Of a DNA stretch of 24,611 nt, positions 15,122-24,611 are shown piece by piece. Where the stretch lies: the IMG/VR virus record IMGVR_UViG_3300048586_000404, positions 1 to 24,611 of that record, one strand, 5' to 3'. A program made the position numbers and the translations under genes. The DNA is from a virus. Under the pieces are notes generated by a model. The model had not been told where the DNA came from, did not search any database, and was given only the letters and a program-made list of their open reading frames with translations. How positions within the stretch are numbered: position 1 is the stretch's first letter; the number at the start of each line of letters is the position of its first letter.

Positions 15122-15433
15122 TCACAGCAGAACAATGTCGCGCAACCTCCCGGAGCGGTGCCGCGCCGTCTCCATCGGTACGCCCAGGGCCTGAGAGAAC
15201 TCGGCATCTGAGATGTGCGGCACGCCGCATGGCACGTGGCCGTCCGTTGCGGCGACGTAGATGGTGCCTGCCGCTCAGCCCGCGGCCTTCCCGCTGAGCG
15301 GCTTGGGGCTCGCCCGCAGCATCCGCAGCACCTTGTTGGCCTTCTCCTGCAGATTCCCGTTGGGCCACTCCGCGAAGAATCGATCCATGTGCTGCTGGCA
15401 CTGTTGCTCAAAGTCGGAGGCAGCTCTTTCTAT
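15122..15433 (-). pseudogene. Degenerate small gene(s) convergent with the phage operon
   Basis: One minus-strand frame reads protein-like sequence in two blocks. Block 1 (15433 to 15275, 52 codons plus TGA) is helical: ERAASDFEQQCQQHMDRFFA, then AEWPNGNLQEKANKVLRMLR. Block 2, same frame after the TGA (15274 to 15122, 50 codons plus TGA), reads TIYVAATDGHVPCGVPH, then HISDAEFSQALGVPMETARH. A perfect AAGGAG ribosome site (15447-15442) sits 8 nt before codon ATA at 15433, where ATG would be expected. The frame ends flush against the + strand stop at 15121. Reading: a gene of about 103 codons that lost its start and gained an in-frame TGA, or two tiny genes with unusual starts. Neither block matches a family I know. 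Confidence 0.5.
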
Positions 15434-15508
15434 CTGGCGTACTCCTTAAATGCGGCTCTTCCATAATGCGCCGTGTCCGTGGGATTGGCGTGCGACCCGC
15501 ATGCGACT

Positions 15509-15595: not shown

Positions 15596-15624
15596 TTGAC
15601 GCCAACAGCGAATAACTGTGAAAT
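15596..15624 (+). promoter_or_regulatory. Candidate sigma70-type promoter for the HTH-helicase operon
   Basis: TTGACG (15596-15601, five of six matches to TTGACA), a 17-nt spacer, then TGAAAT (15619-15624, four of six matches to TATAAT). Transcription would start near 15631, leaving a leader of about 50 nt before the HTH gene at 15684. It is the best match in the only long non-coding interval of the window, but matches of this strength also occur by chance. Confidence 0.4.
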
Positions 15625-15683: not shown

Positions 15684-15872
15684 ATGGCCAAGAAGGTGGC
15701 GGACGCTGTGATGACTATCGACGACCTGGCGGAGTACCTAAAGCTCTCGACGTCCACGCTCTACAAGCTGTGCGCCGAAGGGAAGGTGCCGGGACAGAAG
15801 GTGGGCCGCCACTGGCGGTTCCACAAGGACGTTATCGATCAATGGCTCGGGAAACGCCCAAAGCGCAACTAG
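15684..15872 (+). CDS. Excisionase-type helix-turn-helix DNA-binding protein
   Basis: A 62-aa protein, ATG 15684 after GGAAGGAAG. An in-frame ATG 66 nt upstream lacks a ribosome site. It shows the whole excisionase/MerR-type winged HTH: TIDDLAEYLKLSTSTLYKLC (helix-turn-helix), then GKVPGQKVGRHWRFHKDVID (wing) and a basic end QWLGKRPKRN. Such proteins bind DNA as small helix-turn-helix units and act as regulators or recombination directionality factors. Here it is the first gene of an operon with two helicases and a methylase, 113 nt before the first helicase gene, so a regulator or a DNA-targeting subunit of that system is more likely than a phage excisionase; no integrase is visible nearby. 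Confidence 0.88.
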   Translation: MAKKVADAVMTIDDLAEYLKLSTSTLYKLCAEGKVPGQKVGRHWRFHKDVIDQWLGKRPKRN

Positions 15873-15985
15873 AAAGATGGGTACGACATGATCCGACGTC
15901 CAATATGCGCGACACCCCTGTGCGAGCGACCCGGTTCACTGGGAACGGTCGGACCTGCGATTACCACCGCGCGAGGGGCTCTGGC

Positions 15986-18900
15986 ATGAACGTCTTCGAC
16001 ACCCACGCCAAGATTGTAGGTGATTACGCGAGCTACATCCGAAGCTTCATCAACATTGCCGACCCGGCGATCAGCCAGACGGTTGACGCAGCGCTCGCCG
16101 AAGGAAAGCTTTGGCCGCAACCTCTCCTTCAGTTCAACCCATCCTACGCGATGGCCGGAAGCGTTGCTCAGATCGTCCAGTCGGGCGTGCTTCACGAATC
16201 CGTCACGGACATCTTCAGGGGCTACTCCCTCTACCGGCATCAGCTGGAGGCGATCAAACTTGGCACCGCCGGCCAAGACTTCGTCGTGACCTCCGGAACG
16301 GGGTCCGGCAAATCACTCACGTACATCGCTTCCATCTTCCACCACCTTCTGTGCGAACCGCTGTCAAAAGGCGTGACGGCCGTTGTCGTCTATCCGATGA
16401 ACGCCTTGATCAACTCGCAGACGAACGAGTTCAAAACATACAAGGACAATTACGAGAAGACCACCGGACGCGACTTCCCCATCACGTTTGGCCAGTACAC
16501 AGGCCAGGAGAAGGAGGAGGTACGCAAGAACCTGCGTGAGAATCCGCCGCACGTCTTGCTGACAAACTACATGATGCTCGAGCTCCTGCTGACGCGGGTG
16601 CAGGAGCGGCCAATCCGTGACGCCATCTACGATGACCTTCGCTTCTTGGTCTTCGATGAGCTTCACACGTACCGTGGGCGGCAGGGCGCTGACGTCGCTA
16701 TGTTGATCCGCCGTATTCGCGCGCAATGCAAGCAGCACTCCACATGCATCGGCACATCGGCGACGATGGTGTCAGTCGGAAGTCTGGCGTCACAGCGTGA
16801 GCAGGTTGCCCAGGTCGCCACCACCATCTTTGGGCGTCGGTTTCGTCCAGATCAGGTCGTGAACGAGACGCTTACGCGCTCACTCGCGTACTCGGGTGCG
16901 CTCCCGGATCAGCAATCCCTCGCCCACGCCATCGACAGCGGCATAGATACTGGAAGCGGTGAGGCGAGCCTTCGTTCGCATCCGGTGGCAATATGGTTGG
17001 AGAACCGGGTCGCTCTTGAGGAACGTGAGGGCGAGCTGGTCCGCCGCAGGCCCCTTCGAATTGGTGAAGTGGTGTCCGCCCTCTCCGCGGACTCAGGTAG
17101 GCCTGAGCGGGCCTGTCACGATCATCTCGCGCAGGTGCTGCTCTGGATCAGCACGATCAACCAGAAACTCCGGAGCACCGGATCGCGCTATACGATTCTG
17201 CCGTTCAAACTGCACCAGTTCATTGCCCAGACTGGTTCCGTCTATACCACGTTGGACCAAGACGACAATCGGTTCATCACGCTGGAACCTGGCATATACA
17301 AGCAGGATGAGAAGAACAAGAAGCCGATCTTCCCGAACGTCTTCAGCCGCGCCACAGGTCACCCGTTCATCTGCGTGACGCGCAACGGAGACATGCTCGA
17401 ACCGCGCGAATTCCGCGAGAGTTCCGATGAAGAAGACGGCGTGACTGATGGCTACCTGATTGTCGGCGAAGAGGTATGGGACCCGGAGAATGATCTTGAG
17501 TACCTGCCTGAAGCGTGGCTTCGCACCAACAAAAGCGGCACGTTCCCCGACACGAAAAAGGCCAAGCTGTTCCCGACCAAGATCTTCTTCGACGAGTATG
17601 GCAACTGCTCGGATACCCAGCCGATGAAATTCTGGGGCTGGTTCATGCGCGCGCCATTGCTCTTCGATCCCACGGGCGGTGTCTTCTTCGACACGAAAAC
17701 CAACGAGGGCACGAAGCTCACGAAACTGGGAAGCGAAGGCCGCAGTACGTCAACCACCATTGCCGCCTTTTCCATCCTCAATCAACTGCATGATGCAGGC
17801 TATCACGCCAGAGACCAGAAACTGCTAAGCTTTACAGATAATCGCCAGGATGCCGCGCTGCAAGCGGGTCATTTCAACGACTTCGTGCAGGTGGTCCAGT
17901 TCCGCGCAGGCGTCCACAAAGCGCTTGCCGCCGCTCCCAGCCATACGCTGACATACGCCAACATCGGCGAGGCTGTCTTCAAGGCGCTAGCTTTGCCGTT
18001 TTGTGACTACGGGAATCGGGCGGAGGAGCCTACGATCGCGACCGTGCGCCGGAGCTACGAGCAGACGCTCCAGGCCTACCTTTTCTACCGAGCCGTCTCC
18101 GACCTGCGTCGCAGTTGGCGGATTGTCCTTCCCAATCTCGAACAGTGCGGTCTGCTAACCATCGACTACCTGGACCTCGACGAGATCGCGAGGGAGGAGA
18201 CATTGTGGGCAGATATGCCCCTTGTGTGCGACCTTCCCTCCGCCGAGCGGCGTGCTTTTCTTACGACGATTCTCGACTTCTTCCGGCTGGAGTACGCACT
18301 CCACAGCGAGAACTTCCTTACGCCAACGCGTCTGAAGGAGTATGAGAAGCATTTTCGTGAGCAGTTGAAGGCGCCGTGGACCCTCGACCGCGACGAGGAC
18401 TTGCGCGAGCCATGCGTCATCCGCTTCGAGCCGCTTCACAGGTCGGCAAGGCTGTTCTCGAAGAGCATGGGGCCAGCCAGCGCACTCGGGAAATACATCA
18501 AGCACGCTGCAAATCAGATGGGATTCGACCTTGATGCCCTCCGGGGTGATCACTATCGCGAGTTCATCTTGAAGCTCATGCGGAAGCTCAAGGAGGCGGA
18601 TTACCTTGTTGAGCAGACGGCGCGAAGCGACAAAAACACGGAAGTGTCGATCTTTAGACTTCGCATCGAGAAACTCTTATGGCGTCTCGGCGACGGAGTA
18701 ACCGCGGTGCCCGACGTCATCAAGCGCCGATCCTATAAGGACCAGCGACCGAAGCCCAATGAGTTCTTCCGGGACATGTATCGGCGGGACTTCTCCCAGG
18801 CTAAGAGGCTCCGTGCGGAGGATCACACGGGCCAGCTCAACGTGGAGAATCGGCAGGACCGCGAGGATCGCTTCCGCGCGGACTGGTTCCTTGATGCGGC

Positions 18901-21157
18901 GAAGATGCAGCCTGATGAAGCCAGGATTCGCAGTGATTCGATCAGTGCGTTGTTCTGCTCCCCAACGATGGAACTGGGCATCGACATCGGTGGCCTGAGC
19001 GTGGTCCACATGCGGAACGCACCCCCGAACGCGGCCAACTACGCGCAGCGTTCGGGGCGGGCTGGACGCAGTGGCCAGGGGGCCTTGGTTTTTACCTACT
19101 GCTCCAGCTACTCACCGCACGACCGCCACTATTTCCAGCAGCAGGCCGACCTTGTCGCCGGCACGGTTCAAGCACCCAGGCTTGACCTGTGCAACCGCGA
19201 ACTGCTCTTAACGCACCTGAACGCGCTGGCCATCAGCGAAATTGGCTTGCCGAGCATCGAGTCGCACCAGGGCGAGAGGCCATCGCTCATGCGATTGGTC
19301 GTTGATGACAATGACGTGATGCCCTTGGCTCCCGGCGTCCGCGACGGCCTGCAGATCACGCCGGCGACGTATGGCACGCTGAAGGCAACGTTTCGAAGGG
19401 TGATCAAGGATTTCGAGATCGACCTTCAGGCACGCGCCAGTACTTGGTATTCGGAGGACTGGCTTGACCAGAATCTGGGCAAGCTCGCGGACCATCTCAA
19501 CGCTTCGATGACGCGTTGGCGGCGCCTGTATCGCTCCGCTCGTTCACTTCTTACGCGGGCAACGCAACCGATCGAGAGCGGCCGGCTCACCGTTGGAAGC
19601 GACGAGTACAAGAAGCACAAGCGCCACCAAGACCAAGCCAACCGCCAACTCAATCTGCTTCGGAACGACCTCGGCGGGGCCGACGAGCTGTCCGAGTTCT
19701 ACCCGTATCGCTACCTTGCATCCGAGGGTTTTCTACCGGGCTACAACTTCACCCGGCTTCCCCTTCGAATATTCGTGCCCACGGGCAACACGACAGGGGA
19801 GTTCATCTCCAGGCCACGATCCATCGCGCTACGCGAGTTCGGCCCGCTCAATGTCATCTACCACAACGGGCGGAAGTACCGCGTGTCCCAGTTGGTTGTG
19901 CAGGACGCGGAGTCTTCGCTCACGGAAGCGAAGATCAGCATCAAGGCCGGATACTACCTCGCCGGAGAGCAGAAGGACTTGGAGATTTGTCCGTTCTCGG
20001 GGGCAAACCTCGGCGACAATGCCAACAAGGCACACATTCATGATCTCCTCGAGATGGCCGAGTCTCGCGCGGAGGAGGTCGACAGAATTTCCTGCGAGGA
20101 GGAGGAACGCCTTTCCCGCGGCTTTGACGTCCAGACCTACTTCGCGGTTGACGGCGGGCATTTGGACCGCGTCCGTAAGGCGGTGGCGCGATCCAGTGAG
20201 GCACGCCTGCTGAACCTACGATACATTCCCGCCGCCCGGCTTGTGCATGTGAACAACCAGTGGCGGGCGCAGAAGACCGAGGGCTTTCCAATTGGCCTGA
20301 CGTCTGGCGACTGGCGAAGTTCCATGCCGGAGCCGGAGGACAATCCGCGTGAAGACTTCCGATTAGTCAGGCTCTGGACCTCGAACCTCGCCGACGCCCT
20401 CTACATCGAGCCGATTCAACCGCTAGGATTGAAGCCCGAAGGCGTGATCACGCTGCAACACGCGCTGAAGCGTGCCATCGAGCAGGTCTTCCAAGTGGAA
20501 CCCAGCGAGATCGGCGTGGTGACGGTGGGAGATCCTCAAGCGCCGAACATCCTCCTTTACGAGGCTGCTGAGGGCAGCCTCGGCATCCTATCGCAATTCG
20601 TCGACGACGTGCAGACCTTCCGCAAGGTGGTTGAAGCGGCGAAGGCGATTTGCCGATTTGACGACCCACAGTACCTCGCCCCTGCGTCCTACGACGATCT
20701 GTTGAGCTACTATAACCAGCGGGACCACAAGGTCATCGACCGCTTCCTTATCCGGGACGCACTCGACAAGCTCGCCTTGTGCCTGGTCGAAATCCACACC
20801 AATCCAGGGTTCAGGGATTACGAGGAGCAGTACCAGTCCATGCTGCGGCAACTCGATCCCAACTCGTCCACGGAGCGGGCCTTCATCCAGTACTTGTACG
20901 AGAATGGCTTGCGGCTGCCGGATGCCGCCCAAAAACGAGTCGACGGCATCTATTGCCAGCCAGACTTCTATTACGAGCCGCGCTTTTGGGTCTTCTGTGA
21001 CGGTTCTCCACATGACGACCAGGCCGTACGCGAGCGTGATGAGAGCCAAAGGCAAGCCATCATCGCTCGTGGCGACGAGGTGTGGTCTTGGCACTACCGT
21101 CAAGACTTGGCGACCCGGATCGCTCTGCGATCCGACATATTCAGGAAGGTCCGATGA
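15986..21157 (+). CDS. Giant DEAD/DEAH helicase with DUF1998 region and C-terminal nuclease-like region
   Basis: A 1723-aa putative defence helicase. ATG 15986 is chosen: AGGGG lies just upstream and MNVFDTHAKIVGDYASYIRS is a typical family start; the frame is open back to 15551 but there overlaps the HTH gene. RecA1: Walker A TSGTGSGKS (about 102-110), FDELH (223-227), SAT (258-260). RecA2: SFTDNR (615-620), MELGIDI (995-1001), QRSGRAGR (1021-1028), with about 370 residues inserted between the first two. A DUF1998-like region follows: GVITLQHALKRA (from 1486), YEAAEGSLG (1525-1533), YDDLLSYYNQ (1569-1578), without the usual Cys residues. The last 65 residues (PDFYY 1659-1663, FCDGSPH 1670-1676, then R-x-R-D and GDEVWSWHY) resemble a VSR/DUF559-type PD-(D/E)XK nuclease. 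Overall it is like MrfA/DrmA-B or Druantia DruE. It overlaps the SNF2 gene by ATGA. Confidence 0.85.
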   Translation: MNVFDTHAKIVGDYASYIRSFINIADPAISQTVDAALAEGKLWPQPLLQFNPSYAMAGSVAQIVQSGVLHESVTDIFRGYSLYRHQLEAIKLGTAGQDFVVTSGTGSGKSLTYIASIFHHLLCEPLSKGVTAVVVYPMNALINSQTNEFKTYKDNYEKTTGRDFPITFGQYTGQEKEEVRKNLRENPPHVLLTNYMMLELLLTRVQERPIRDAIYDDLRFLVFDELHTYRGRQGADVAMLIRRIRAQCKQHSTCIGTSATMVSVGSLASQREQVAQVATTIFGRRFRPDQVVNETLTRSLAYSGALPDQQSLAHAIDSGIDTGSGEASLRSHPVAIWLENRVALEEREGELVRRRPLRIGEVVSALSADSGRPERACHDHLAQVLLWISTINQKLRSTGSRYTILPFKLHQFIAQTGSVYTTLDQDDNRFITLEPGIYKQDEKNKKPIFPNVFSRATGHPFICVTRNGDMLEPREFRESSDEEDGVTDGYLIVGEEVWDPENDLEYLPEAWLRTNKSGTFPDTKKAKLFPTKIFFDEYGNCSDTQPMKFWGWFMRAPLLFDPTGGVFFDTKTNEGTKLTKLGSEGRSTSTTIAAFSILNQLHDAGYHARDQKLLSFTDNRQDAALQAGHFNDFVQVVQFRAGVHKALAAAPSHTLTYANIGEAVFKALALPFCDYGNRAEEPTIATVRRSYEQTLQAYLFYRAVSDLRRSWRIVLPNLEQCGLLTIDYLDLDEIAREETLWADMPLVCDLPSAERRAFLTTILDFFRLEYALHSENFLTPTRLKEYEKHFREQLKAPWTLDRDEDLREPCVIRFEPLHRSARLFSKSMGPASALGKYIKHAANQMGFDLDALRGDHYREFILKLMRKLKEADYLVEQTARSDKNTEVSIFRLRIEKLLWRLGDGVTAVPDVIKRRSYKDQRPKPNEFFRDMYRRDFSQAKRLRAEDHTGQLNVENRQDREDRFRADWFLDAAKMQPDEARIRSDSISALFCSPTMELGIDIGGLSVVHMRNAPPNAANYAQRSGRAGRSGQGALVFTYCSSYSPHDRHYFQQQADLVAGTVQAPRLDLCNRELLLTHLNALAISEIGLPSIESHQGERPSLMRLVVDDNDVMPLAPGVRDGLQITPATYGTLKATFRRVIKDFEIDLQARASTWYSEDWLDQNLGKLADHLNASMTRWRRLYRSARSLLTRATQPIESGRLTVGSDEYKKHKRHQDQANRQLNLLRNDLGGADELSEFYPYRYLASEGFLPGYNFTRLPLRIFVPTGNTTGEFISRPRSIALREFGPLNVIYHNGRKYRVSQLVVQDAESSLTEAKISIKAGYYLAGEQKDLEICPFSGANLGDNANKAHIHDLLEMAESRAEEVDRISCEEEERLSRGFDVQTYFAVDGGHLDRVRKAVARSSEARLLNLRYIPAARLVHVNNQWRAQKTEGFPIGLTSGDWRSSMPEPEDNPREDFRLVRLWTSNLADALYIEPIQPLGLKPEGVITLQHALKRAIEQVFQVEPSEIGVVTVGDPQAPNILLYEAAEGSLGILSQFVDDVQTFRKVVEAAKAICRFDDPQYLAPASYDDLLSYYNQRDHKVIDRFLIRDALDKLALCLVEIHTNPGFRDYEEQYQSMLRQLDPNSSTERAFIQYLYENGLRLPDAAQKRVDGIYCQPDFYYEPRFWVFCDGSPHDDQAVRERDESQRQAIIARGDEVWSWHYRQDLATRIALRSDIFRKVR

Positions 21158-24027
21158 CCACGCTCCTCCAGCCAGGCAAACTCGTCTCACTGCGCGGTCG
21201 CGAATGGGTTGTCCTTCCTTCCGATGACCCAGATTTGCTCATCGTGAAGCCGCTGGGCGGCTCAGATGAGGAGACCGCCGGCATCTATCTACCGCTACAG
21301 ATAGAGGCCGATCAGCCACGCGATGCGTGCTTCCCGCCGCCCGCGCCGGCAGATTTGGGCGATGTCAGCACTGCTCGACTGCTCTACGACTCTGCGCGGC
21401 TTGCGTTCCGCAACGGCGCTGGCCCGTTCCGTGCGCTGGCGAAGCTGTCTTTCCGACCTCGTGCCTACCAGATTGTTCCGCTGACCATGGCGCTGCGCCA
21501 GGACGTTGTGCGTCTGCTCATTGCGGATGACGTCGGTGTCGGCAAGACCATTGAGGCGTTGCTCGTGGTGCGCGAGCTGTTGGAGCGGCGCAAGATCAAG
21601 CGCTTCGCCGTGGTCTGTCTGCCACATCTCTGCGACCAGTGGCAGGAGGAGATTCGCTCGAAGCTCGACATCGAGGCTGTGATCATTCGCTCCAGCACAC
21701 AAGCCCGGCTTGACCGCCAGATTCAGGGCGATGCAAGTGTTTACGACTACTACCCCTACCAGATCGTCAGCATCGACTTCATCAAATCCGACGTAAGGCG
21801 GGACGTCTTTATCGAACAGTGCCCCGAACTTGTGATCGTTGACGAGACCCACACCTGCGCCCGCCCAACCGGCGCTTCGGCCGCACAGCAGCAGCGCTAT
21901 CACCTTGTCAGCAGAATCGCCGCGAAGGCTCGGCAGCATCTCGTTCTCCTGACCGCCACACCCCACAGCGGCAAGCCGGAGGAATTTCAGTCGTTGCTAG
22001 GGCTTCTCCGCCCCGAGTACGAGGCGATTGACCTTCCCACTTCGACGCAGTCGCAGCGCCGCGAGCTTGCCCAGCACTTCGTTCAGCGGAAACGCGCCGA
22101 TGTGGAAAAGTGGATGGACGAAGACACGCCCTTCCCGAAGCGCGAAGCGTTCGAGTGGCCGTATGACCTGTCGCGCGAGTACGCCGGGTTCTTCGACGAC
22201 ATCCTCGAGTTCGCGCGGAAGCTGGTGGTGTCGGACGGTTCCAGCCGGAGATCCAAACGCGTTCACTACTGGACCGCGCTGGCTCTTCTGCGTGGCGTCA
22301 TGTCGAGCCCCGATGCGGGCGTGAAGATGCTCAATACCCGCCTGGACAAACTCGCGGCAGCGGCCAGCGAGGGGGATGCCTCGGCAAACGATAACACCGA
22401 GCCCGAAGGCGAGAACCCCGTCCGTGACCTCGACTTCGGCTTTGAGGGTGACAACACGCCCACACAGGTTATTGAGCAGGGCGATTGGAGCGATCACCAA
22501 CGGCGGCAGTTGCGGCAATTCGCCGAGCGTCTGGAACGTCTTGGCGACATTCAGCATGACCACAAACTACTCGCGGCTGCCCTCGTGCTGGAAGAGTGGC
22601 TCAAACACGGCTTCAAACCAGTCGTGTTCTGCCGGTACATCGAGACGGCGAACTACCTCGGCAAACACCTAGAATCGGCGCTGCGTGGGAAGTTCCCCAG
22701 GCTTGATCTGCGCGTGGTGACCAGCGAGCTTCCCGACGACCTCCGCAAGCAGCGCATCGCGGAAATGGCCGGCGACAAGCCCCGCATCCTCATCGCCACG
22801 GACTGTCTCAGCGAGGGCATCAACCTTCAGGAATCGTTTACCGGCGTCCTGCATTACGACCTGCCGTGGAATCCCAACCGCCTGGAGCAGCGCGAGGGCC
22901 GGGTGGATCGTTTCGGCCAGAAGGCGCCGGAGGTGAAGGCATGCCTCCTTTATGGCTCGGACAATCCGATTGACGGCATCGTGCTCGATGTGCTGCTGCG
23001 CAAGGTGCGCGAGATAAAGCGGGCCACCGGTATCAACGTCCCGTTTCCCGAAGATTCGCAGAGCATCATCGACACCATCACCCAGGCGTTGCTCCTCAAC
23101 CCCGACCGCCGCATCGAAGGCAAACGCAGGGCAAACGAGCCGACGCTCTTTGACTTCCCCGAGTTTCCCGAGGCTGCCGCCGCCAAGGCCAACGTTACAC
23201 GCAAAATTGACGAGGCAGCAGAACGCGAGAAGACCTCGCGCAGCATCTTCGCGCAGAACGCGATCAAGGCACAGGACATCGCCGAGGACCTGAAAGTCGT
23301 GGACGAGGCCATCGGGAACCCACGGGCCGTGGAGGATTTCGTCACGGCCGCTCTCGCCGGGCTGTTTGGCGTACAGATTACCCAGGAACGCGACGGCCAC
23401 GGCATCGTTACGGGCAATCTTCCGCCCCAACTCGTTGATCTGCTGCCCCCCGGTCGCGTGGTGAAGGTGAGCTTCGAGTCTCCCACGCCCGAGGGCTACC
23501 ACTACCTGGGCCGCAACCACCGGTTCGTCGAGCAGCTTTGCCAGTTGGTCATGGCCAATACCCTGGCCCGCCAGGACAAGCGTGCCGCGCGAGCCGCTGT
23601 GATCCGCACCAAGCAGGTCACCAAGAAGACGACGTTGCTCCTGTTCCGCTGCCGCAACGTCATTGAGCAGGGCAAGGGTGGGCACCAGATCGTCGCTGAA
23701 GAGATGCTGCTGTGGGGCTGGCGCGGCACCCCCGGCCAGAAGGAATTCCTCGAACATGCCGAGGCCAAGGATCTGCTGGCTGCGGCGCGGGCATCCAGCG
23801 ACCTCTCCCCCCAGTCTCGTGCCAACTTCCTTGAAAACGAGCTCAAGCTCATCGGGAAGCTAGACGCCGAGTTCGCCACCATCGCCGAGGAGCAGTCCAA
23901 GCGGCTGGTCGCGGCCCACGAGCGATTCAGCGCACTGATGGACAGGCAGAAGTTCCAAGTTGTCTACCCCGTCCTACCTATGGACCTGCTGGGCCTCTAC
24001 ATCCTTCTGCCGGAGGCCGCATCGTGA
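21154..24027 (+). CDS. SNF2/RapA-type helicase, DrmD-like
   Basis: A 957-aa SF2 ATPase starting at ATG 21154, in the ATGA overlap, with AGGAAGG upstream; the same frame is open back to 21082 but that lies inside the helicase gene. Motifs: Walker A ADDVGVGKT (124-132), DETH (230-233), LLTATPHSG (265-273), then in the second RecA lobe VVFCRYIETANYL, ILIATDCLSEGINL and motif VI QREGRVDRFGQ (579-589). These are SNF2/HepA-like. After the core come a charged region (IDEAAEREKTSRSIFAQNAI) and a helical C-terminus. In class 1 DISARM, the SNF2-like DrmD is encoded directly before the adenine methylase DrmMI, exactly the order here. It probably remodels or translocates on DNA for the system. It overlaps the next gene by GTGA. 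Confidence 0.88.
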   Translation: MTTLLQPGKLVSLRGREWVVLPSDDPDLLIVKPLGGSDEETAGIYLPLQIEADQPRDACFPPPAPADLGDVSTARLLYDSARLAFRNGAGPFRALAKLSFRPRAYQIVPLTMALRQDVVRLLIADDVGVGKTIEALLVVRELLERRKIKRFAVVCLPHLCDQWQEEIRSKLDIEAVIIRSSTQARLDRQIQGDASVYDYYPYQIVSIDFIKSDVRRDVFIEQCPELVIVDETHTCARPTGASAAQQQRYHLVSRIAAKARQHLVLLTATPHSGKPEEFQSLLGLLRPEYEAIDLPTSTQSQRRELAQHFVQRKRADVEKWMDEDTPFPKREAFEWPYDLSREYAGFFDDILEFARKLVVSDGSSRRSKRVHYWTALALLRGVMSSPDAGVKMLNTRLDKLAAAASEGDASANDNTEPEGENPVRDLDFGFEGDNTPTQVIEQGDWSDHQRRQLRQFAERLERLGDIQHDHKLLAAALVLEEWLKHGFKPVVFCRYIETANYLGKHLESALRGKFPRLDLRVVTSELPDDLRKQRIAEMAGDKPRILIATDCLSEGINLQESFTGVLHYDLPWNPNRLEQREGRVDRFGQKAPEVKACLLYGSDNPIDGIVLDVLLRKVREIKRATGINVPFPEDSQSIIDTITQALLLNPDRRIEGKRRANEPTLFDFPEFPEAAAAKANVTRKIDEAAEREKTSRSIFAQNAIKAQDIAEDLKVVDEAIGNPRAVEDFVTAALAGLFGVQITQERDGHGIVTGNLPPQLVDLLPPGRVVKVSFESPTPEGYHYLGRNHRFVEQLCQLVMANTLARQDKRAARAAVIRTKQVTKKTTLLLFRCRNVIEQGKGGHQIVAEEMLLWGWRGTPGQKEFLEHAEAKDLLAAARASSDLSPQSRANFLENELKLIGKLDAEFATIAEEQSKRLVAAHERFSALMDRQKFQVVYPVLPMDLLGLYILLPEAAS

Positions 24028-24611
24028 GCTACCCAAGTATTCGCATCGAAGGGGCCATCCTCTCTCCGGACATTCTGGACCGGATCGAGGATATCCAGGG
24101 CCAGCGTCCCGCCGACTTCGGCATCCCCTCGCCCGGCAAAGTTAAGGACGAGATCGCCCGCGCTTGGGCCGATGCACAGGACTACTGGCGGATCTACCAG
24201 CGCAAGATCGAGTCGCTTCGCCCCGAGTCCCTGGCCACAACCGAAACCCGCAATCTCTGGATCGTTCCCCTTCTGGGTCTTCTGGGCTACCAGCTCGAAT
24301 ACCAGCATCAGGGCATCAAGGCCGGCGACAAGAGCTATCCCATCTCCCACCGCACAATCAACCGCGCCCTGGGTGCCGTTCACATCGTCGGCTATCGCGA
24401 TCCCGCCGGACTGGATCGCAAGCCGGAGCGCGCCGCCGGCCCGCGCATGTCCGCCCATGCGTTGGTGCAGGAATACCTCAACCTCTCCGACCAGCTCTAC
24501 GCCATCGTCACCAACGGCAAACTCCTGCGCCTGTTGCGCGACAGCTCGCGCCTGGTGAAGCTCACTTACCTGGAGTTCGACCTCGACCGCATCTTCACCG
24601 ACGGCCTCTTT
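24024..24611 (+). CDS. Eco57I-like adenine DNA methyltransferase/R-M protein, N-terminal part (DrmMI-like)
   Basis: An open frame of 196 codons running off the window's right edge. It starts with GTG 24024, overlapping the SNF2 stop by GTGA. The N-terminal region reads IARAWADAQDYWRIYQRKIE, TTETRNLWIVPLLGLLGYQL, SYPISHR, then LVQEYLNLSDQLYAIVTNGK, LLRLLRDSSRL and LTYLEFDLDRIF. This is the conserved N-terminal region of the large Eco57I-type methylase/restriction proteins (often over 1000 aa), including DrmMI of class 1 DISARM. The catalytic NPPY-type motif would lie further downstream, outside the window, so methylase activity itself is not seen. Expected role: N6-adenine methylation of host DNA to mark self, in one operon with the two helicases. 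Confidence 0.8.
   Translation, partial: MSYPSIRIEGAILSPDILDRIEDIQGQRPADFGIPSPGKVKDEIARAWADAQDYWRIYQRKIESLRPESLATTETRNLWIVPLLGLLGYQLEYQHQGIKAGDKSYPISHRTINRALGAVHIVGYRDPAGLDRKPERAAGPRMSAHALVQEYLNLSDQLYAIVTNGKLLRLLRDSSRLVKLTYLEFDLDRIFTDGLF

What the first reader, a model, noticed from the sequence alone, without database searches (positions are those of the whole stretch)
15684..24611. HTH - fused helicase/DUF1998/nuclease - SNF2 helicase - Eco57I methylase operon, a DISARM-related system with a new layout
Seen: four + strand genes, the last three joined by 4-nt overlaps, encoding a small HTH protein, a giant helicase with DUF1998 and nuclease-like regions, an SNF2 helicase and an Eco57I-type N-terminus. 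Known: class 1 DISARM contains DrmD (SNF2), DrmMI (adenine methylase), DrmA (helicase), DrmB (DUF1998) and DrmC (PLD nuclease). Inferred: here DrmA, DrmB and the nuclease are replaced by one polypeptide, and a DNA-binding HTH protein is added. It could be a distinct DISARM/Druantia-like class.
Basis: partly seen in the sequence, partly recalled or inferred. Interest (0 to 1): 0.8.

Follow-up and report, generated by a model that had tools for sequence, protein, structure and literature searches.

The report
Zinc-free ARMADA defence operon beside prophage
The genes are a recently described kind of bacterial anti-virus system (ARMADA Type I) at the edge of a virus of Planctomycetota bacteria, but its main helicase belongs to a branch that has lost the zinc-holding cysteines that its relatives keep, an apparently undescribed variant that can be tested directly.

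Summary
In detail: an HTH gene, a 1723-aa helicase, an SNF2 helicase and a methylase N-terminus lie in a row, the last three joined by 4-nt overlaps. The 'new DISARM-like class' reading is half right: this layout is ARMADA Type I, described in a 2025 preprint (PMC12458937): YprA-like helicase with fused Vsr-type nuclease, RapA-like helicase, PglX/DrmMI-like methylase. The order recurs at about 20 loci I examined, with complete NPPY/NPPW methylases and no drmA/B/C. A tree puts the window within Type I, apart from E. coli ARMADA II and Druantia. What looks new is inside the helicase: an 11-member clade from several phyla has no cysteine at ten zinc-ligand positions in three modules (0 of 102 residues, against 438 of 441 in 46 relatives), yet dN/dS is about 0.04. 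The HTH gene and its upstream element are shared with only two close relatives, so it is probably a regulator. An SMC/DUF2326-like ATPase follows the methylase at 6 of 20 loci. The operon starts about 150 bp right of the last phage-type sequence of a prophage family common in Planctomycetota, whose right ends often adjoin other defence or metal-resistance genes. Whether it is phage cargo or chromosomal flank is unresolved.

The parts
15122..15445 (-). Pseudogene (in-frame stop, no start) of a ~105-aa gene that sits at the right end of related prophages; last phage-type sequence before the operon
   Evidence: translation and homologues of 104-121 aa beside prophage right ends
15596..15624 (+). 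Conserved promoter-like/operator-like element upstream of the HTH gene
   Evidence: same element upstream of the HTH gene in L002 and L004; no chance matches in shuffles
15684..15872 (+). Small HTH_17 (excisionase/MAD1-like) protein, probable regulator
   Evidence: Pfam HTH_17 1.9e-16, PADLOC mad1 7e-12, NCBIfam MAD1 below its cut-off
15986..21157 (+). YprA/DruE-like helicase (ArmC-like), 1723 aa, zinc-free clade
   Evidence: DruE profile 1e-76; DEAD, Helicase_C, MZB; tree
17345..17677 (+). Former zinc module 1 (residues 454-564; CxxC and CxxC replaced by S/T and D/G)
   Evidence: alignment columns
19937..19999 (+). Former zinc module 2 (residues 1318-1338; three of four cysteines replaced)
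   Evidence: alignment columns
20651..20698 (+). Former DUF1998 zinc cluster (residues 1556-1571; C1564, C1568, C1571 replaced by L, S, D)
   Evidence: alignment columns
20798..21154 (+). C-terminal Vsr/DUF559-type nuclease domain with invariant E, PDF and DGxxH residues
21154..24027 (+). SNF2/RapA-like helicase (BrxHII/DrmD/DpdE-like; ArmA-like)
   Evidence: PADLOC DpdE 7e-192, DrmD 8e-85; NCBIfam DrmD 2e-92 below its cut-off
24024..24611 (+). N-terminal 196 aa of a PglX/DrmMI-like adenine methylase, cut by the contig end
   Evidence: 95% identical to L004 methylase (DrmMI 1e-229, Eco57I, NPPY)

Best explanation
An ARMADA Type I anti-phage operon of a clade whose YprA-like helicase has lost its structural zinc sites. 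Proposed working: the methylase marks host DNA at a specific adenine motif; the YprA-like helicase loads on phage DNA that lacks the mark, moves along it with ATP and cuts it with its fused Vsr-type nuclease; the SNF2 helicase helps to sense or remodel the target; the HTH protein tunes expression through the element upstream. Shown here: gene order, domains, phylogenetic place, catalytic residues, loss of ligands, purifying selection. Inferred from ARMADA II and DISARM: defence activity, methylation as self-mark, translocation and cutting, regulation by the HTH protein. Zinc-free folding is inferred from sequence only.
For: Gene order and overlaps; the same order at about 20 loci; tree with the window inside the Type I group; Vsr/DUF559 domain with invariant catalytic residues; NPPY/NPPW in relatives' methylases; 0 of 102 against 438 of 441 cysteines at ten ligand positions, with non-ligand cysteines kept; dN/dS 0.03-0.05 for helicase, SNF2 and methylase against L004; defence neighbours in relatives such as LmuB-like, HamA and ABC-3C genes; published activity of ARMADA Type II (PMC12458937).
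Against: No Type I system has been shown active in the text read; the methylase of the window is incomplete; AlphaFold models were of too low confidence to show the BrxA-like, beta-barrel or nuclease folds; loss of zinc binding is not measured.
Confidence: 0.88

Rival explanations
1. A distinct new DISARM class, in which DrmA, DrmB and the nuclease fused and an HTH protein was added.
For: The SNF2 protein and the methylase are closest to DrmD/DpdE and DrmMI profiles.
Against: The helicase is closer to DruE (1e-76) than to DrmA (2e-12); it groups with ARMADA I helicases; the layout is already described as ARMADA I; the HTH gene is not conserved.
Confidence: 0.05
2. The operon is chromosomal flank next to an integrated prophage, not phage cargo.
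For: GC falls from 66% in the phage part to 60% in the operon; L002 and L004 carry the operon without similarity to the window's phage genes; several prophages of this family have ordinary host genes right of the tail module.
Against: The operon's conserved element starts about 150 bp from the last phage-type sequence; many relatives have some other defence or metal-resistance locus at the same spot; in G245 such genes lie between the tail genes and a serine recombinase, with none found in the 19 kb left of the portal.
Confidence: 0.5
3. The clade is a decaying, non-functional copy whose zinc sites are lost by drift.
For: Ten conserved cysteines are missing.
Against: The replacements are shared by 11 sequences from several phyla; all three genes are open with dN/dS about 0.04; helicase and nuclease residues are kept.
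Confidence: 0.03

Closest known systems
ARMADA Type I (Bell et al. 2025 preprint, PMC12458937)
   Same: YprA-like helicase first, then BrxHII/RapA-like helicase, then PglX-like methylase; Vsr-type nuclease fused to the helicase C-terminus; no GajB-like fourth gene.
   Different: Loss of ten of eleven zinc-ligand cysteines in three modules; an HTH gene with its own upstream element in front (window, L002, L004); position at the right end of a prophage.
ARMADA Type II (E. coli NCTC 12900, ATCC 8739; here E. coli plasmid locus L178)
   Same: Homologous helicase, SNF2 helicase and methylase.
   Different: Type II order is SNF2, methylase, YprA, then a UvrD/GajB-like helicase; zinc ligands kept; far away in the tree.
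DISARM class 1
   Same: DrmD-like SNF2 helicase and DrmMI-like methylase.
   Different: Helicase and OB-CON-DUF1998 parts are fused in one protein; nuclease is Vsr-type and fused, not a separate PLD protein.
Druantia (DruE)
   Same: DruE is the best PADLOC match of the helicase.
   Different: No DruA-D, DruM or DruH partners; SNF2 helicase and methylase instead.
MADS (MAD1)
   Same: The HTH protein resembles MAD1 (64.9 bits against a cut-off of 80).
   Different: No other MADS gene is present in the window.

Membership tests
ARMADA Type I | Gene order YprA-like helicase, BrxHII/RapA-like helicase, PglX-like methylase | tested here: met
   complete methylases in relatives
ARMADA Type I | Helicase falls in the ARMADA I clade of the YprA tree | tested here: met
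   inside a 27-row Type I group (support 99), apart from E. coli ARMADA II and Druantia-like rows; DrmA, DpdJ and MrfA were not in the tree
ARMADA Type I | C-terminal Vsr-type nuclease fused to the helicase | tested here: met
   DUF559 in 12 of 16 members, MTES_1575 in 5, Vsr in 1; invariant E, D, DGxxH; window member alone has no hit
ARMADA Type I | BrxA-like insert, beta-barrel and coiled-coil finger domains | tested here: inconclusive
   AlphaFold2 model of the region had pLDDT 43
ARMADA Type I | Zinc-binding modules of the YprA family, including the DUF1998 4-Cys cluster (a common feature, not the authors' criterion for the class) | tested here: not met
   0 of 102 ligand cysteines in the clade, 438 of 441 in 46 relatives
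ARMADA Type I | Anti-phage activity | not testable with these tools
   shown for Type II only in the text read
DISARM class 1 | Separate drmA and drmB genes | tested here: not met
   one polypeptide carries helicase and MZB/DUF1998 regions
DISARM class 1 | PLD nuclease DrmC | tested here: not met
   no drmC-like gene follows in the relatives read; the window itself ends inside the methylase
DISARM class 1 | DrmD and DrmMI homologues | tested here: met
Druantia | DruE with DruA-D, DruM or DruH partners | tested here: not met
   partners are an SNF2 helicase and a methylase

The most novel reading that the evidence does not exclude
A zinc-independent form of an immune YprA-family helicase: three metal modules were lost together in one ARMADA I lineage and replaced by metal-free folding, similar in logic to the zinc-free (C-minus) ribosomal protein paralogues, and the form spread across phyla on prophages and plasmids; the Planctomycetota prophage family acts as a carrier with an exchangeable slot for defence or metal-resistance genes.
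Probability: 0.4. Interest if true: 0.65.

Novelty: new variant of a known kind. Interest (0 to 1): 0.45.

Why it matters
The preprint treats extra zinc modules as a hallmark of defensive YprA helicases and says the DUF1998 cysteine cluster marks the whole family and was lost entirely only in Dpd. A conserved, multi-phylum operon without ten of these ligands suggests that the zinc is dispensable in ARMADA and offers a natural control for what the modules do (target recognition, stability or complex assembly). The phage setting adds a candidate route by which such large systems move.

Tried and rejected
AlphaFold2 models of two helicase regions were of low confidence (pLDDT 41 and 43), so no fold search was run. 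phmmer of the helicase C-terminus alone against the PDB gave nothing useful. A viral-contig scan with the window helicase alone found nothing; with a broader alignment it found 8 contigs at 28-38% identity, none of the zinc-free clade. Sigma-70 promoter, terminator and tRNA scans of the junction were negative. An intact gene at 15122-15445 was rejected (in-frame stop, no start). The HTH protein as a core component was rejected. BRIGADE, TALON and Dpd were considered and dropped because the partner genes do not fit. A search of the junction peptide in phage and plasmid records found nothing.

Full report
Observation. The window is an entire IMG/VR contig. ORF calling and family searches confirm the reported genes. 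The helicase starts at 15986 rather than 15551, since relatives begin at the same MNVFDTH methionine. The junctions helicase/SNF2 and SNF2/methylase overlap by 4 nt. The methylase runs off the contig after 196 codons; its closest relative (L004, 95% identical over that stretch) is a 1413-aa Eco57I/MmeI-type methylase with NPPY, and L003 has NPPW.

Identity. PADLOC profiles give DruE for the helicase (1e-76; DrmA only 2e-12), DpdE/DrmD for the SNF2 protein and DrmMI for the relatives' methylases. This is the architecture named ARMADA Type I in PMC12458937: YprA-like helicase with a C-terminal Vsr-type nuclease, BrxHII/RapA-like helicase, PglX-like methylase. The three-gene order is present, with small exceptions, at 20 loci where the sequence reaches past the methylase, including Agrobacterium, Paraburkholderia and Caballeronia plasmids; in a few loci an extra gene lies between SNF2 and methylase, or the methylase is split. 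Deinococcus radiodurans plasmids have the same order. A maximum-likelihood tree of 32 helicases places the window in the Type I group (support 99), apart from an E. coli ARMADA II helicase and two Druantia-type ones (branches of the outgroups are long, and DrmA was not included).

Nuclease. The last 119 residues align across Type I with invariant E, D (PDF or ADF) and DGxxH residues. Pfam matches are DUF559 in 12 of 16 members, MTES_1575 in 5 and Vsr in 1, none for the window member alone. A profile search of the PDB gives an endonuclease-like protein, 3hrl, at E 0.004. This is the Vsr-like PD-(D/E)XK group, not PLD.

Zinc modules. In 46 other ARMADA I, ARMADA II and Druantia-type helicases, ten cysteine positions in three modules are kept in 438 of 441 cases. 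In the window and ten relatives (about 67-87% identical) none is cysteine, 0 of 102. The relatives come from Planctomycetota, Elusimicrobia, a Deltaproteobacteria-titled genome and two others of its phylum, Methylococcaceae/Crenothrix, and two Burkholderiaceae plasmids. One further ligand, C1335, is kept, as are non-ligand cysteines such as 991 and 1039, so this is not a general shortage of cysteine. The clade is monophyletic (support 100), and dN/dS against L004 is about 0.04 for helicase and SNF2 and 0.03 for the methylase part (synonymous sites are near saturation, so the ratio is rough). PMC12458937 says that the DUF1998 cluster marks the whole family and was lost entirely in Dpd. PMC13192584 reports structural zinc clusters beside the DNA channel of DruE. 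I found no report of an ARMADA lineage without them in the papers held; supplementary files were not readable here.

Accessory genes. The HTH_17/MAD1-like protein and a 29-nt upstream element are shared in place with L002 and L004 only; a weaker HTH relative occurs near one other locus, L252. A regulator is the simplest reading. An SMC/DUF2326-like ATPase directly follows the methylase in L004, L008, L009, L183, L233 and G328, 6 of 20 loci, with and without zinc ligands. The window ends before that place.

Phage setting. The left 15 kb encode portal, head protease, tail and tape-measure proteins. Portal homologues occur in 40 of 392 sampled genomes of the phylum of L004 (Planctomycetota), up to four per genome. 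After the last + strand tail-side gene comes a pseudogene on the - strand; intact relatives of it sit at the right end of related prophages. About 150 bp further the operon's conserved element begins. At the same place relatives carry a CRISPR array, Type I R-M or C5-methylase/Vsr/Z1/DUF4420 genes, HmaAB-like, DrmD/DrmMI-like or BrxHI/SngC-like helicase systems, metal-transport genes, or ordinary host genes (the last two by reading the translations, not by a family search). G328 has an ARMADA I operon about 11 kb beyond the tail genes, in the opposite direction. This fits a cargo slot, or repeated integration beside islands. Without att sites I cannot decide, and no control for the density of such genes elsewhere was run.

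Mechanism. Shown by sequence: ATPase and nuclease motifs are intact, and the methylase motif is intact in relatives. Inferred from ARMADA II and DISARM: methylation as self-mark, translocation on unmarked phage DNA, cutting by the fused nuclease, protection without cell death.

Verdict. A known kind of system (ARMADA Type I) in a new variant, by its loss of zinc ligands, in an interesting but unproven phage-borne position.

Noticed in passing
L161, L164, L168, L174, L093, L097, L098, L107: Relatives of the window's prophage have different defence loci just right of the tail genes (CRISPR array, R-M systems, HmaAB-like, DrmD/DrmMI-like, BrxHI/SngC-like): a candidate defence hotspot of a Planctomycetota prophage family.
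   Followed up: partly
L165, L166, L167, L262, L263: Other prophages of the family have heavy-metal transport or resistance genes at the same place, judged from translations.
   Followed up: partly
L004:18699-20735, L008:27312-29282, L009:27318-29288, L183:21435-22863, L233, L159/L160: An SMC/DUF2326-like ATPase gene directly follows the ARMADA I methylase at 6 of 20 loci; a LmuB-like gene directly precedes the helicase in L003.
   Followed up: partly
L219 (519-aa ORF) and L004:4447-6066: A related ATP-binding (AlbA_2-like by eye) protein lies between SNF2 and methylase in L219, in pieces in L006, and upstream of the HTH gene in L004.
   Followed up: no
window:14765-15121: Last tail-side gene (118 aa, cysteine-rich N-terminus) has 29 relatives in viral contigs and no PHROG family.
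   Followed up: partly
L267-L271, L272: Five other IMG/VR contigs carry ARMADA-like helicases (34-38% identity); a more distant one (29%) is on the 102-kb contig that also holds a relative of the window's phage, L018.
   Followed up: no
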